Of a DNA stretch of 64,000 nt, positions 26,443-43,821 are shown in pieces. Both the position numbers and the translations under genes were made by a program. The stretch lies in assembly GCF_016888165.1 (NCBI RefSeq), contig NZ_JACSWC010000203.1, positions 1 through 64,000 of the forward strand, written 5' to 3'. Under the pieces are notes generated by a model. It was not told the origin of the DNA. It worked only from the letters and a program-made list of their open reading frames with translations, and made no database searches. Position 1 is the stretch's first letter; every line of letters starts with the position of its first letter. Source of the stretch: Halomicronema sp. CCY15110 (lineage in GTDB: Bacteria; Cyanobacteriota; Cyanobacteriia; Phormidesmidales; Phormidesmidaceae).

Positions 26443-27990
26443 GTGGAGAGCGTCCGACCAGCTCGCATACTTTTACGAGTCATTGACAGCTCACTGAATA
26501 TCGTTGAGCGCGATCTGGCCGTGCAGGAGTTTTGGCGCGCGTTGCCGCAATATGACATGAGCCCCGGCGAGCGCATCAAACCGTTAAGAACTCCCCCTGA
26601 AGGGGACACCCTGTATGGCCTCGATATCCGCTTGCCCGAGCCCGAACGAGTCGCCACCTGGCTAGAGTGCATCAGCGCTTGTCTGGAGGACTTGGGCGTC
26701 AGCGACCTACTGCCAGTCGATCACGTTACCATTCGCCTCACTTGCACCATTGAGCACGTCACGACCCAAGTTGAGACCGCCTCCGGTGAGGTCGTCCTGA
26801 GCCTGTTACCCGCCGTCAACATTCTGTTGCCGGAGCAGCAACTGTTCCAAGCCCGAGCAGCCCTCTATGCCCAGCATGAGGGGGAGTTTTCGCCCATCGA
26901 AGAAGAAAATTTGGAACTTTTGCGGAATCAATTGCAACTTGATGAGGAAACCGCCGAGCAAATCAAAATTCGCGCCCTGGGCCCCTATCAGGATCGGCAA
27001 ACCAAGCTGGAACGCTATCGCACCTTGCTCAGCCATGAGCTTGACCGCCAAATGCCCTTGAGCGCGCACACGCAGACCGAACTCGCCCGCTTTTGCGAAG
27101 CGATCGGCCTGGCCGCCAACGACGAAGAAATTGCCACCATCAGCATCGAAGAAATTGCCCAGCGCCAATCCTCGGAAAACACCCCGGACTCTGAATCAGA
27201 AGAGTCTGACGATCGCCCCCCTAAACAACCCGAATCACCGTCGCCCCAACAACTGTTGGCCATGCAGCAACAGCGGGCAGAAGCGTATCGCCAGGAGTTT
27301 GCCGGGGCGATCACCCGGTCGCCTTACCCCAGCGAATTTGACCGGGGCCGCCTCGAACAAGCCCGCCGGAACTGGCAGTTGGATCGGGAAATTGTGCGCG
27401 CGATCGAACGTGAAGCCACCGATGAGCGGTACGGCCACATTGATTCAGCCTTGGGCCTGGACTACACGCGTCTCCGGCAATTGCTGTGGCTCAACCATTG
27501 GGAAGCCGCTGATCAAGAAACTGAGCGCCTGCTCTTATCCGCTCTGAGCCACGACATGCGTCCCCTCGCCACCGATACCTTATTGAGCTTGAGTCAGTAC
27601 TGTGCCGACGTGCAAACTATCGATCAGCTGTGGGCGCGCTACAGTCAAAACAAGTTTGGGTTTGCCGCGCAGCAGCAGATCTATGCGGAGTGCGATCGCC
27701 AGCCCGGCGAGTTTTTGACCGCTGTCGAGTGGATCGAAAACGTCGGCATCGGCAACGTCAGCCTCCTCGTCCGCCGCAAAGCCTATCGCCATCTCCAGTT
27801 TCATTTGCAGGCCCCCCCGGGACATTTGCCCACCTGGCGCTGGGCCGCCAATAGCCTTGAAGGCGACTATGTGGTGAGCGAAGACATCATTCCCCAACTA
27901 TTCCACGATGTCATTGAACACTGCTTGCCCCACCTGAAAAAATCCAGCAGTCCCCCGCCCCCCTCGGCAGGAGATGACGAGCCATCATGA
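26443..27990 (+). CDS. GUN4-domain protein with long N-terminal region
   Basis: A 515-residue protein starting with GTG. Residues ~1-135 are an unrecognised alpha/beta domain. About 145-235 is a helical, acidic repeat region (FSPIEEENLELLRNQLQLDE... and a second similar unit), a pattern seen in other cyanobacterial GUN4 multi-domain proteins. A charged linker follows. The C terminus (~345-490) is a GUN4 domain: LDYTRLRQLLWLNHWEAADQ, TIDQLWARYSQNKFGFAAQQ. True GUN4 binds protoporphyrins and stimulates Mg-chelatase in chlorophyll synthesis; paralogues like this may sense tetrapyrroles in other settings. Its stop overlaps the next GUN4 gene by 4 nt (ATGA). Confidence 0.85.
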   Translation: MESVRPARILLRVIDSSLNIVERDLAVQEFWRALPQYDMSPGERIKPLRTPPEGDTLYGLDIRLPEPERVATWLECISACLEDLGVSDLLPVDHVTIRLTCTIEHVTTQVETASGEVVLSLLPAVNILLPEQQLFQARAALYAQHEGEFSPIEEENLELLRNQLQLDEETAEQIKIRALGPYQDRQTKLERYRTLLSHELDRQMPLSAHTQTELARFCEAIGLAANDEEIATISIEEIAQRQSSENTPDSESEESDDRPPKQPESPSPQQLLAMQQQRAEAYRQEFAGAITRSPYPSEFDRGRLEQARRNWQLDREIVRAIEREATDERYGHIDSALGLDYTRLRQLLWLNHWEAADQETERLLLSALSHDMRPLATDTLLSLSQYCADVQTIDQLWARYSQNKFGFAAQQQIYAECDRQPGEFLTAVEWIENVGIGNVSLLVRRKAYRHLQFHLQAPPGHLPTWRWAANSLEGDYVVSEDIIPQLFHDVIEHCLPHLKKSSSPPPPSAGDDEPS

Positions 27991-28508
27991 TGACCACCGA
28001 CATCCAAGACGGCCTGCAAGAGCTCGACAGCCTCTTAAGCCACGCCGACTGGCAACTGGCCGATGAGGTCACCCTCCAGATCATGCTGGCCGTCAGCGAT
28101 CGCCGGGAAGCGGGCTGGCTCGATCAGGCGGCGATCGCCAACTTTCCCTGCGCTACCCTGCATGAACTCGACCAGCGTTGGCTGTTCTACAGCAGCGGCC
28201 GATTTGGTTTCAGCACGCAACTCCACATTTATCGTGAAGCCGCTGAGCGCTCCAGTTTTGAGTTTAGCCGTCAGGCTGGGTGGGTGATGAATCTTTGGCA
28301 GCCCATCGGGTTTTTCAACTTTTACCACTGGTTAAATTTTTCTCTAGACGCCCCTCAGGGACATTTACCAGCCCTCTGGTTTTGGGAAATGCCCTGGTAT
28401 CGCTCTTGGCTCATCGGCGGCTTTGGCACCGGGCGGGGCGGGGGCTTTGGCGACCCGAGCCTGTTCGATGCGCTCATGCTGCGATTAGAACGATGCCAAT
28501 CCATTTAA
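27987..28508 (+). CDS. Small GUN4-domain protein
   Basis: A 173-residue protein consisting almost entirely of one GUN4 domain: LQELDSLLSHADWQLADEVT, then GWLDQAAIANFPCATLHELD and LFYSSGRFGFSTQ, followed by a Trp-rich segment. Its start overlaps the preceding GUN4 gene by 4 nt, so the two are translationally coupled and probably act together. GUN4 binds porphyrin through a loop-rich surface. Whether this is the canonical Mg-chelatase cofactor or a paralogue is uncertain; the tandem arrangement favours a paralogue. Confidence 0.85.
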   Translation: MMTTDIQDGLQELDSLLSHADWQLADEVTLQIMLAVSDRREAGWLDQAAIANFPCATLHELDQRWLFYSSGRFGFSTQLHIYREAAERSSFEFSRQAGWVMNLWQPIGFFNFYHWLNFSLDAPQGHLPALWFWEMPWYRSWLIGGFGTGRGGGFGDPSLFDALMLRLERCQSI

Positions 28509-28643
28509 AGAGCCTCAGCGGCTTCTCCATCATTTTAAGTTCGATACAAAGCCCATCATTCGACCCGTCGGCCGCAGAAACGGATGGAGCAACGAACTCT
28601 GCCGGAGGATCGCTCTACTCCCTCAGAGAACGGCATGGGAGAG
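28509..28643. other. Spacer between GUN4 pair and tandem repeat
   Basis: No gene seen. It leads into the 98-bp repeat array. Confidence 0.4.
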
Positions 28644-28935
28644 GCGATCGCCCTCTCACCCAAAACGAGCGATCGCTCACGGTGGCTCGGATGCGATTGG
28701 GGCGATCGCTCTCAAATCACTTCGGCAGCGACACGAGAAATGCGATCGCTCCCTTACCCAAAACCAGCGATCGCTCAAAGTGACCCGGATGCGATGGGGC
28801 GATCTCACTCAAATCACTTCTGCGTCGGCACGGGAAAGAAGATCGCGGTCTCACCCAAAACCAGAAATCGCTCAAAGTTGCTCGGATGTGATGGGGCGAT
28901 CGTTCTCAAAATACTTCAGCGATCGGCTCAGAAAA
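28644..28935. repeat. ~98-bp tandem repeat, three diverged units, HIP1-rich
   Basis: Units start at about 28644, 28742 and 28839. Each follows the order: GATCGC, CTCACCCAAAAC-AG, GATCGCTCA, CTCGGATGCGAT-GGGGCGATC, CTCAAATCACTTC, and a GGCACGGGAAA-like end. The first two units hold several intact GCGATCGC sites; the third has lost most of them by point changes. Frames open across it are low-complexity and not protein-like. Confidence 0.85.
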
Positions 28936-28984: not shown

Positions 28985-29650
28985 TTAAGGCTGCAAATCC
29001 CCTCCACCCAAATAACTGTATGATTCAGTTTCAATATCACTATTTTGTTCAATTAAAATTTGTGAAGATTCGACTTCCGGCTGTGACGTAAAATACTTGA
29101 AGGCAAACACAACTGTAGTCACCAGGACAATAATAACCAGTATCACAGAAATTTTTATTGGTACAGAAATCCGCCTTTTATCATTGCTTTCAGAAAATAA
29201 AAAATCAGAATCGACCTGAATGATGAGAGGCGCTTCTCCATCAACCACCACTTTTTTTGAATTCATTTCATTGGCAGGAAGCGGATACAATGTACTGTAA
29301 GTATCAGACACCATATTCCAGATTCTATTTTTTAAATTAAAATCGTCAAATTCAACTTCTAAATATTCAGCATCAAAATAAACTAACTCGTGCGGAATAA
29401 CTCTACCTGAGCGATCTTTTCTGCGTTCAGGATCCGTGAAAATAAAAGCAACATAAAAAAAACTTCGATTTTCGAGCAAGTTAATTTTGCCACGGCAGGT
29501 ATAATCTGATACCGAAACTTGTTTGTACTTGAAAACTTCCTCATAGATTTCCAGCCAGTTTCTAGAAGCAACATTTATATTAGGGTGAAGTAGAAATCGA
29601 AAACCCCAGTCTTCACCACGAGTTGACCAAAGCACATTTTGTAAATTCAT
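28985..29650 (-). CDS. Single-TM protein partner of the adjacent GTPase, unknown family
   Basis: A 221-residue protein. It opens MNLQNVLWSTRGEDWGFRFL, continues as an alpha/beta domain (~1-160), has one membrane helix (~165-187, KISVILVIIVLVTTVVFAF) and a short acidic tail. The N-terminal domain is therefore cytoplasmic or external with a C-terminal anchor. Its ATG overlaps the stop of the GTPase gene by 4 nt (ATGA), which implies coupled expression and a joint role. The DNA is markedly AT-rich next to its neighbours and has few HIP1 sites, consistent with recent acquisition. I do not recognise the domain with certainty. The layout resembles GTPase plus GTPase-associated protein modules proposed as conflict systems. 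Confidence 0.75.
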   Translation of the reverse strand: MNLQNVLWSTRGEDWGFRFLLHPNINVASRNWLEIYEEVFKYKQVSVSDYTCRGKINLLENRSFFYVAFIFTDPERRKDRSGRVIPHELVYFDAEYLEVEFDDFNLKNRIWNMVSDTYSTLYPLPANEMNSKKVVVDGEAPLIIQVDSDFLFSESNDKRRISVPIKISVILVIIVLVTTVVFAFKYFTSQPEVESSQILIEQNSDIETESYSYLGGGDLQP

Positions 29651-30783
29651 TGCTTATCCGAAAAGTAAATCTTTTGAGTATCGTCGGTTCTCAATTTTCC
29701 AGCAAAAGCTGCAACTACTGCTGAGGCTGAATCGCCCTTTTTTCTGGCTGAGATTTTTATATCCTTCAACTTGTCCGTAGCTGATTTAGCAGTATCATCT
29801 AACAGCATGAAAACATTTCCAACAAGAGGCAAGTACTTCATCCAGTTGGTTGTGAGATTACGGAAAATTTCTAATATCTTATAGATCCCTGCATTGCCTT
29901 GCTCACCTACTCTTGCCCAAAGTAAGGCTCTTTTAATTGGCAGAATTATTGATATAGGAGGGATAAGATCAATCCCAATATTTTGCTTTAGGTCAACTAT
30001 CTTGCCTGTTTCTGGGTTGAATTTTGCAGAAGATAGCAGCAAGAAGTCTTCACCAATTGATTGGTATTGATCACCATTCAAAATTTCTCCCAATACTGAC
30101 TTTAACTCTATTATCTCGTCGGCAGCAGCTCTATGTACTTCATCTTTAAACCAATAGACGTCCTTGTCAGGAAAAAGATCCGACTTCGAAAGACATATGA
30201 CCCATATTCGAGGAAACGTTGTTAACTTTTTTTGGTCAGATAGAACCGCATTTTTCTGACGTTCTAATTCATCCCTAAAGCTACCAAATAAACGTCTGAT
30301 ATACTTGCCGCCTTCGTTTTTCAAGGATTGACCATCACATAAGAAAAAAGCAATATCTGATTCTAAGAGCGAACGGAAAGCTTCCAGCTTTCTTCTGGCC
30401 TCAACTTCTTTCTTATTCTCTGTCCACCATTCTCCAGGATAATCGTGCCATACAATTGAACCAGCCGGTCTTTCCAGGTCTTTAACGGTGATTGTAAACT
30501 TAAACGAATGATATTGATATCTTGTAGTTTCGGGCAGTAAGCTTTCCTTCATTTTGAGATATCCATTGGAAAGTCTTAACCCTTGATTAGCATCTTCTGC
30601 GAGTAAACTATAGCCAACATTTTGCTTAAAGGCAGGCTCTTTATGCCATCCATAGAAGGTATTTAGGAGTGTTGTCTTGCCACTGCCAGATTCACCGAAT
30701 ACGGCAATATGTTGCTCAATTTTTTTGCGTGGACGGAATATATTGTCCTTCAGCTTTTGTAACTTTTTTGTTGCTTGGCTCAT
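29647..30783 (-). CDS. TRAFAC-type GTPase, unknown system
   Basis: A 378-residue protein with a full set of G motifs: G1 GESGSGKT (30-37), G3 DYPG (114-117) after WH, G4 SKSD (199-202) and G5 SSAK (251-254). The long insert between G1 and G3, and the hydrophobic WHDYPGEWW, are unlike Ras, Era or septins. The C-terminal third (~265-378) holds an amphipathic or weakly hydrophobic stretch (LIPPISIILPIKRALLW, MKYLPLVGNVFMLL) that may touch membrane. It is AT-rich, with AAGGAA before the ATG. It is the first gene of a two-gene operon with the single-TM protein. GTP use is strongly supported; the biological role is not known. Confidence 0.82.
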   Translation of the reverse strand: MSQATKKLQKLKDNIFRPRKKIEQHIAVFGESGSGKTTLLNTFYGWHKEPAFKQNVGYSLLAEDANQGLRLSNGYLKMKESLLPETTRYQYHSFKFTITVKDLERPAGSIVWHDYPGEWWTENKKEVEARRKLEAFRSLLESDIAFFLCDGQSLKNEGGKYIRRLFGSFRDELERQKNAVLSDQKKLTTFPRIWVICLSKSDLFPDKDVYWFKDEVHRAAADEIIELKSVLGEILNGDQYQSIGEDFLLLSSAKFNPETGKIVDLKQNIGIDLIPPISIILPIKRALLWARVGEQGNAGIYKILEIFRNLTTNWMKYLPLVGNVFMLLDDTAKSATDKLKDIKISARKKGDSASAVVAAFAGKLRTDDTQKIYFSDKQ

Positions 30784-30853: not shown

Positions 30854-31132
30854 TTATATGAAAACTTTAATGATGGTACAGGTGCTGGTGAAACGCTTGC
30901 CGAATGAGGTATTGCCCCATCTGTCATAGGGGGCTTAGAGTCGATCAACCAGATCGACGAAATCCTTGCCTTTAGTTATCACAATCGCCTTTTGAGCTTT
31001 TGCCGTTGCGAAAATCTCAGGATATTCGGTATCTCGTAGGCCAAGATCGCGCAATGCGATTGCTGTCACCTCAAAGTCATCGGTTATCCAAGCCGCGATC
31101 GCGGGTAAAAGTTGGGCATCAACCCAGATCAT
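30854..31132 (-). pseudogene. Broken DUF5615 (PIN-like) toxin gene
   Basis: The frame from 31132 encodes 65 residues typical of DUF5615 PIN-like toxins: MIWVDAQLLPAIAAWI, ALRDLGLRDTEYPEIF, VITKGKDFVDLVDRL. It then hits TAA at 30935, where intact members continue with Gly-Pro-Pro and IW-CGNTS. In the same frame beyond the stop, the family motif is still visible as WGNTS, followed by ~16 residues and a second stop at 30854. So there is a premature stop plus a small internal deletion. No DUF433-type antitoxin frame is found upstream. The product would be a truncated, probably inactive fragment. Confidence 0.75.
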
Positions 31133-42790: not shown

Positions 42791-43821
42791 CTACTTTCTA
42801 GAGCTTTTCATCAAAATACTTTCAACCAACCTCGAAATATGCTCTACATCGACGCAAAAATTCGAATCCCGATCAACCCCTGACTCAGGAAACCAAGGTA
42901 TGTAGTTGTGATTCAAGGTTTTCGACAAGTATTCATAATGAGGGCGAGAACATTTCAATGGAAATAACTCCAGGACATTTAAACCATCCGAGAAAATAAT
43001 ATTTGTCAAACCTGCACCGTGTGGCGAAACGACAAAAGATGCATCGTAAAACAGATTGATCTGTTCTTGAACAGACATGTCTTCAAGGTGGTATCTTTGA
43101 AATCCATAAGATTCCAGCTTCAATAACAGATCATCTTCATTCAGTACACACCGTTTACTATTCCTCCCCGAGAGCTTTCGGGAAATGTAAACTAGCTTCT
43201 CCTTTCTTCTTGGCCGATCTGGCAACACACTGCTACGAAAAAAATCAAGGTAATCAATGGGTAGACCATCAGGATATCTATTTATTATATAATCTGGCAA
43301 TAAAATATGCTTCAAATGATAAATTCGATCTGCATCAACAGGCACAGCTTCAACATCTTCCGGCAAAATTTTTTCAGTGAAGAACTTTTCTGTTTCAGTC
43401 AGACCGCCAGGCACTAACAACTTAATCTTTCCTAGGCTTTGAAAAGTACTCTTGTATTTTTTATGAGGTATAGTCTTGGTAGATGATCAATGACCGTATG
43501 GTAGTAGTTTGAATGCCTGAACATTGATCTAAAGACACTGCAGATGCCGTCTATCTCATCTTTTGAAGATAGGTGCAATTTCCTTAAACTATATTTTTCT
43601 GGTTTAAAGTGACCTTTAACTGATTCTAGAATCAATCTTCCTTGACTATCGAAAACTGTATTGTACTTGGGATAATAAGTGACATTGTCCAGCATTACGG
43701 CATGAGCGTTAGTGCCAGTATAGGTATATTTAGAGGTTTGATCGCCAGGCACTATTTTAGGTCTTTTATGAATGAGTGCTTGACGTATTTTCTTTTGGAT
43801 TGAAATCTTTAAATCATTCAT
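42791..43821 (-). pseudogene. GT61 family glycosyltransferase gene, split by a frameshift
   Basis: Two frames encode one GT61 (DUF563) protein. The first, from 43821, gives 129 residues, with SMFRHSNYYHTVIDHLPRLY (the N-terminal GT61 motif). The second, in the -1 frame and ending at 42791, gives the C-terminal part, with KLVYISRKLSGRN and FVVSPHGAGLTNIIFSDGLN. The break lies at the T run 43457-43462 (A6 in the gene). One extra A there restores a single frame through ...LIKKYKSTFQSLGKIKLLVPGG. Together ~340 residues, a normal length. GGAG precedes the ATG. GT61 enzymes add xylose, GlcNAc or similar sugars to glycans. AT-rich DNA suggests acquisition. Confidence 0.85.

What the first reader, a model, noticed from the sequence alone, without database searches (positions are those of the whole stretch)
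28985..30783. AT-rich two-gene module: unusual GTPase translationally coupled to a single-TM partner
The GTPase has all G motifs (GESGSGKT, DYPG, SKSD, SSAK) but an atypical long G1-G3 insert, and its stop overlaps the ATG of a protein with an N-terminal domain opening LWSTRGEDWGFRFL and one C-terminal membrane helix. The DNA is AT-rich and poor in HIP1 compared with both sides, and it lies beside a broken toxin gene. I infer an acquired module, plausibly a membrane-linked conflict or signalling system like the GTPase plus GTPase-associated protein systems proposed by comparative genomics.
Basis: partly seen in the sequence, partly recalled or inferred. Interest (0 to 1): 0.7.

Follow-up and report, generated by a model that had tools for sequence, protein, structure and literature searches.

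The report
DO-GTPase with coupled longin-like membrane partner
This is a laterally acquired two-gene bacterial switch: a GTPase of a family proposed to run cell-conflict systems, always paired with an undescribed small, often membrane-anchored protein that looks like the GTPase-switching-off 'longin' proteins of the eukaryotic growth-control pathway.

Summary
The two genes, the four G motifs, the ATGA overlap, the single C-terminal membrane helix, the AT-rich DNA and the broken neighbouring toxin-like gene are all there.

The partner has no family in Pfam or NCBIfam, nor in PADLOC, and no GAP1-M gene is present: this is not a canonical GAP1 system.

Related pairs lie in Cyanobacteria, Desulfobacterota, Lentisphaerae, Planctomycetes, Actinobacteria and Moraxellaceae. 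The partner directly follows the GTPase in all 16 loci with sequence beyond it, and the two diverge in step (r = 0.86 non-redundant, Mantel p = 1e-4).

AlphaFold gives the partner a confident longin-type order (bbabbbaa). Its best Foldseek probabilities include FLCN/FNIP2 and GATOR1 chains, with E-values that are only suggestive. An invariant D-x3-R motif sits just before the last strand, where FLCN keeps its catalytic D160-SLA-R164. The same motif recurs in GAP1-N2 and in three further cyanobacterial DO-GTPase partner families.

I propose that the partner is a membrane-anchored arginine-finger GAP of a conflict or envelope-stress switch. The pair is shown; the GAP role and the defence role are inferred.

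The parts
29647..30783 (-). DO-GTPase2-family GTPase, 378 aa
   Evidence: PF19993 36.4 bits vs cut-off 27, E 5.7e-9; 23-70% identical homologues in 15 other loci
30673..30696 (-). G1/P-loop GESGSGKT (residues 30-37)
   Evidence: G30, G33, G35, K36, T37 invariant in 16 homologues
30433..30444 (-). G3 DYPG (114-117), followed by E118, the conserved glutamate of DO-GTPases
   Evidence: D114-G117 invariant, E118 nearly invariant (D in L005); family feature
30178..30189 (-). G4 SKSD (199-202)
   Evidence: K200 and D202 invariant
30022..30033 (-). G5-like SSAK (251-254)
   Evidence: S251 invariant
29647..29650 (-). ATGA overlap of GTPase stop and partner start
   Evidence: junction sequence; partner starts within about -17 to +24 nt of the GTPase stop in the homologues
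28985..29650 (-). partner protein, 221 aa, no known family
   Evidence: no significant Pfam, NCBIfam or PADLOC match; partner homologues have no Pfam match either
29261..29650 (-). partner cytosolic domain (residues 1-130), longin-type order b-b-a-b-b-b-a-a
   Evidence: AlphaFold2, most blocks pLDDT above 87; Foldseek probability 0.97 to 6ulg_N, 0.77-0.90 to GATOR1 chains, E about 0.01-0.04
29402..29416 (-). D79-R-S-G-R83 motif, proposed arginine finger
   Evidence: D79 and R83 invariant in 16 homologues; lies in the b4-b5 loop; same pattern as FLCN D160-SLA-R164
29087..29164 (-). single transmembrane helix (residues 163-188), positively charged residues on the N-terminal side (KRR)
30935..31132 (-). 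truncated DUF5615 (PIN-like toxin family) gene, neighbour, probably not part of the module
   Evidence: PF18480 35.9 bits over profile 3-62/110; remnant beyond the stop

Best explanation
A laterally acquired two-gene GTPase switch. The DO-GTPase binds and hydrolyses GTP. The co-translated partner carries a cytosolic longin-type domain, tethered by one C-terminal helix to the inner membrane, which docks on the GTPase and switches it off by inserting the arginine of its D-x3-R loop (R83) into the active site, as FLCN, NPRL2 and SMCR8 do for their GTPases. An invader or envelope disturbance would break or change this contact, and the GTP-bound GTPase would then release a response. That response is sometimes encoded next door (HEPN/AbiU2 in Phormidium, kinase-FGS in a planctomycete) and is absent or elsewhere in this genome. 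Shown: the conserved pair, its coupling, the co-divergence, the family of the GTPase, the invariant motif. Predicted by model: the fold and the membrane topology. Inferred: the contact, the GAP activity, the trigger and the biological role.
For: GTPase above the DO-GTPase2 cut-off with E after DxxG. Partner adjacent in 16 of 16 loci with sequence beyond the GTPase, six phyla. GTPase and partner found in the same 2 of 386 cyanobacterial genomes when searched separately. Distance matrices correlate: r = 0.95 for all 16, 0.86 for 11 non-redundant loci, Mantel p = 1e-4. Partner model has longin order bbabbbaa, N-terminal domain confident. Leading Foldseek probabilities include FLCN-FNIP2 and GATOR1 complex chains. 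D-x3-R before the last strand is invariant in the partner and recurs in GAP1-N2 (S for D in two sequences) and in three other cyanobacterial DO-GTPase partner families; FLCN R164 is D160-SLA-R164 in the PDB sequence. Longin GAPs act by an arginine finger (PMC8213707); longin domains were proposed to derive from prokaryotic GTPase-binding GAP domains (PMC3521125). Defence-type surroundings: L049 has a type ISP restriction-modification enzyme and CBASS genes; a HEPN_AbiU2 gene overlaps the partner gene in L003; PIN-RelB in L040 and Pkinase-FGE-sulfatase upstream in L042.
Against: Foldseek matches are weak (best E 9.3e-3, TM-score 0.32 on the full model) and mixed with PAS/LOV domains, which share the PAS-like fold. 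Profile-profile comparison of the partner with GAP1-N2 and with the other partner families does not clearly beat column-shuffled decoys, so their homology rests on motif and strand order. No complex or biochemistry. The D-x3-R match to FLCN is a short pattern and NPRL2 R78 (KKYSR) does not share the aspartate. 5 of 16 partners lack the membrane helix, so anchoring is not essential. In Moraxellaceae the setting is ordinary chromosome.
Confidence: 0.5

Rival explanations
1. The partner is the effector: a membrane protein that the GTPase assembles or releases to damage the membrane when infection is sensed.
For: Single membrane helix in 11 of 16 partners; published DO-GTPase systems use membrane and SLATT effectors.
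Against: Five partners have no membrane helix and three of them are only 111-115 aa, all conserved domain; the invariant residues lie in the cytosolic domain.
Confidence: 0.15
2. The module is a membrane-stress or polarity switch without an immune role, comparable to MglA-MglB or to the DO-GTPase found in some psp operons.
For: Ordinary chromosomal neighbourhood in a Moraxellaceae clade near valS; DO-GTPase genes in gammaproteobacterial psp operons, predicted to act in membrane stress (PMC11237479).
Against: Very patchy distribution, AT-rich insertion, plasmid-borne defence island copy, HEPN and toxin-antitoxin neighbours.
Confidence: 0.25
3. The partner is a longin-type scaffold or exchange factor (like Ragulator or DENN) rather than a GAP.
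For: Longin and roadblock domains also serve as scaffolds and exchange factors (PMC3521125; PMC5680233, listed); DENND10 is among the Foldseek matches.
Against: An invariant arginine at the arginine-finger position is expected of a GAP, not of a scaffold.
Confidence: 0.2

Closest known systems
DO-GTPase/GAP1 conflict systems (GAP1-N1 and GAP1-N2 types; Pfam PF19975, PF19993, PF20012-PF20014)
   Same: GTPase of the same Pfam family with the conserved glutamate; regulatory protein encoded immediately downstream; frequent membrane link; partner domain has the same predicted strand order and D-x3-R motif as GAP1-N2
   Different: Partner is one small domain with or without a membrane helix, no GAP1-M, no zinc ribbon on the GTPase, no GASH or FNIII component seen; no significant profile match to GAP1-N2
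Longin-domain GAPs FLCN-FNIP2, GATOR1/NPRL2, C9orf72-SMCR8
   Same: Predicted fold order and conserved arginine in the loop before the last strand, D-x-x-[AG]-R as in FLCN
   Different: Bacterial, single chain, no DENN domains; similarity by model and motif only; GTPase is not Rag, Arf or Rab
MglA-MglB (bacterial small GTPase with roadblock GAP)
   Same: Two-gene bacterial module of GTPase plus a small GTPase-binding domain
   Different: Roadblock is a circular permutation of longin (PMC3521125); in MglA-MglB the catalytic arginine comes from MglA (PMC8336837)
Cyanobacterial DO-GTPase pairs with 'SRG' partners (loci L014, L017, L021-L028, L033, L034)
   Same: DO-GTPase-like gene followed by a protein with an N-terminal SRG/TRG motif and D-x3-R-x-I, often ending in a membrane helix
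   Different: Partner longer, with a second domain; sequence relation to the window's partner is borderline (hhalign 22.9 vs decoy maximum 23.0)

Membership tests
DO-GTPase2 family (PF19993) | Score above the curated cut-off | tested here: met
   36.4 bits vs 27; L003 and L005 homologues 32.7 and 31.5
DO-GTPase2 family (PF19993) | Conserved glutamate in the Walker B/G3 region | tested here: met
   DYPGE118, nearly invariant in 16 homologues; feature stated in PMC7159879
DO-GTPase/GAP1 conflict system | Downstream gene encodes a three-domain GAP1 (N, M, C) | tested here: not met
   Partner has no Pfam match; GAP1-M and GAP1-N2 absent from the genome and from 194 cyanobacteria searched; GAP1-C was not searched genome-wide
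GAP1-N2 domain | Sequence-profile similarity | tested here: not met
   hhalign score 13.5, below several of 100 shuffled decoys
GAP1-N2 domain | Same strand/helix order and invariant T, G, D-x3-R, H pattern | tested here: inconclusive
   Order bbabbba in both models; motif order shared; no coordinate superposition possible
GAP1-N1 domain | Match to PF20012 | tested here: not met
   No partner matches it in Pfam scans; no GAP1-N1 sequences were obtained for a profile comparison
Longin-domain GAP | Longin topology | tested here: inconclusive
   AlphaFold order bbabbbaa, Foldseek probability 0.97 to an FLCN-FNIP2 complex chain but E 9e-3 and PAS hits too
Longin-domain GAP | Catalytic arginine finger in the loop before strand 5 | tested here: inconclusive
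   Invariant R83 in that loop; catalysis not testable here
Anti-phage defence system | Demonstrated protection against phage | not testable with these tools
   Needs an experiment
Anti-phage defence system | Recurrent location in defence islands | tested here: inconclusive
   Clear in L049, suggestive in L003, L040, L042, not in Moraxellaceae; no relevant match in PADLOC

The most novel reading that the evidence does not exclude
The proteins encoded just downstream of bacterial DO-GTPases (this family, GAP1-N2 and at least three more sequence families in cyanobacteria) are all longin-fold, arginine-finger GAPs, i.e. bacterial counterparts or forerunners of the FLCN/NPRL2/SMCR8 GAPs of eukaryotic nutrient signalling, here working as the off-switch of membrane-linked conflict systems.
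Probability: 0.33. Interest if true: 0.82.

Novelty: new variant of a known kind. Interest (0 to 1): 0.6.

Why it matters
It gives a minimal, two-gene form of the DO-GTPase systems, whose mechanism has been unknown since they were proposed. It also offers one testable residue (R83, and the equivalent arginine in GAP1-N2) for how the switch is turned off. If the longin reading is right, it links a bacterial conflict-system regulator to the GAPs that control mTORC1 in animals.

Tried and rejected
Search for close homologues with the single GTPase sequence in genome contigs found none; the alignment query found 14. Viral contigs gave no relative; the one 'phage' hit, MT835574, is an unverified, unannotated clone and is not counted as evidence for phage carriage. 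GAP1-N2 homology by hhalign: rejected at the profile level; all-against-all of five partner families gave at most borderline scores. A decayed HEPN effector or intact DUF5615 copy in the window: none found by tblastn. GAP1-N1 search was uninformative because nothing matched in any control genome. Paper searches for longin domains in bacterial conflict systems found nothing, but the library is partial.

Full report
What is there. The two genes lie on the minus strand at 30783-29647 (GTPase, 378 aa) and 29650-28985 (partner, 221 aa) and overlap by ATGA. All G motifs are present. The stretch has 37.7% G+C against 54.4% for the window and no HIP1 site, although the HIP1 deficit alone could be chance. 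Upstream is a truncated DUF5615 gene; downstream are a 97-bp HIP1-rich tandem repeat and two GUN4-domain genes.

What the GTPase is. It passes the curated cut-off of Pfam DO-GTPase2 (36.4 vs 27 bits) and keeps the glutamate after DxxG. The family was defined in 2020 with the DO-GTPase/GAP1 conflict systems (PMC7159879). It is the only gene in this genome that matches the family.

The pair is a unit. An alignment search of the GTDB species set found 14 relatives. With the search of cyanobacterial relatives and the plasmid and phage collections this gave loci from Cyanobacteria, Desulfobacterota, Lentisphaerae, Planctomycetes, Actinobacteria and Moraxellaceae. In all 16 loci with sequence beyond the GTPase, the next gene encodes a protein with LWxTRGxxWGFRFL (or LVWMTCGxxxGYQxLL in Moraxellaceae), starting from about 17 nt before to 24 nt after the GTPase stop. 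Three others (L004 and L035, which are the same contig, and L043) are cut by a contig end. Searching 386 cyanobacterial genomes separately with GTPase and partner profiles gave the same two genomes as strong matches. Distances co-vary (r = 0.95 for all 16; 0.86 and Mantel p = 1e-4 for 11 non-redundant). The unit is rare and scattered: 1 of 294 planctomycetes and 5 of 99 sampled genomes of the family around Agitococcus by strong match. That is the pattern of lateral transfer.

Neighbourhoods. In a Curtobacterium plasmid the pair sits between a TniQ-bearing gene cluster and a type ISP restriction-modification enzyme, followed by CBASS genes. A decayed partner copy lies beside the same kind of enzyme in another Curtobacterium plasmid. 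In Phormidium sp. FACHB-1136 a HEPN_AbiU2 gene overlaps the end of the partner gene, and an intact DUF5615 gene lies close by. In L040 a PIN-RelB pair is adjacent; in L042 a protein kinase-FGE-sulfatase gene lies upstream, and FGS proteins were reported in planctomycete GAP1-N2 systems. In Moraxellaceae the setting is ordinary chromosome near valS (valS named from its N-terminal sequence, not scanned). So defence is plausible but not established.

What the partner is. No library knows it. AlphaFold from 14 homologues gives a confident N-terminal domain, strands and helices in the order b-b-a-b-b-b-a-a, then a membrane helix at 163-188. Five of 16 homologues lack that helix. GAP1-N2, folded the same way, gives the same order b-b-a-b-b-b-a. 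Foldseek finds no match with E below 0.001. For the partner the strongest probabilities include an FLCN-FNIP2-Rag-Ragulator chain (0.97) and GATOR1 chains (0.77-0.90), among many PAS/LOV domains. GAP1-N2 hits mainly PAS/LOV. Longin domains are themselves PAS-like (PMC3521125).

The motif. Sixteen of 16 partners have an invariant D-x3-R in the loop before the last strand. The same [D/S]-x3-R before a hydrophobic strand is found in 16 of 16 GAP1-N2 sequences, 12 of 12 'SRG' partners, 4 of 4 'DSFGR' partners and 2 of 2 of a third cyanobacterial type. FLCN's catalytic R164 is D160-S-L-A-R164 in the PDB sequence; NPRL2's R78 is KKYSR. That the FLCN and NPRL2 arginines lie in the same loop of the longin fold is from my own knowledge of those structures, not measured here. 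Longin GAPs work through this arginine (PMC8213707). The families do not match one another convincingly by profile comparison, so common ancestry is a proposal that rests on strand order and motif.

Mechanism. I commit to an arginine-finger GAP tethered to the membrane that keeps the DO-GTPase off until a trigger acts. The pair, the coupling and the motif are shown. Fold and topology are predicted. GAP activity, trigger and output are inferred. The window itself holds no recognisable effector next to the pair.

Novelty. The GTPase family and the general idea of a GTPase plus associated protein are known. The minimal single-domain partner family, its obligate pairing across phyla, and the longin/arginine-finger reading of DO-GTPase partners were not found in the papers I could search.

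Noticed in passing
window 28600-28920: Tandem repeat of about 97 bp, 3 to 4 copies, rich in HIP1 octamers, between the GUN4 gene and the end of the partner gene.
   Followed up: partly
window 26443-28508: Two adjacent overlapping genes each with a GUN4 domain (515 aa with a long N-terminal extension, and 173 aa).
   Followed up: no
window 42791-43821: Second AT-rich island with a glycosyltransferase-like gene apparently split into two frames (209 and 129 aa), possibly a pseudogene.
   Followed up: no
L014, L017, L021-L028, L033, L034: A much commoner cyanobacterial two-gene arrangement: DO-GTPase-like gene followed by an 'SRG' protein with D-x3-R-x-I-R-N and often a C-terminal membrane helix; no published description found.
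   Followed up: partly
L010:8262-11745: DO-GTPase1-type GTPase overlapping a gene with an N-terminal DSFGR domain and WD40 repeats, then a Trypco2-domain gene, close to conjugation-like genes.
   Followed up: partly
L031 and L032: Tandem pairs of DO-GTPase-like genes in cyanobacteria; a partner with VYGRTYExDFRFLA follows the GTPase in L013 and L016, from the same two contigs.
   Followed up: no
L051:4977-6461: Truncated copy of the GTPase beside an IS3 transposase on a Frondihabitans plasmid.
   Followed up: no
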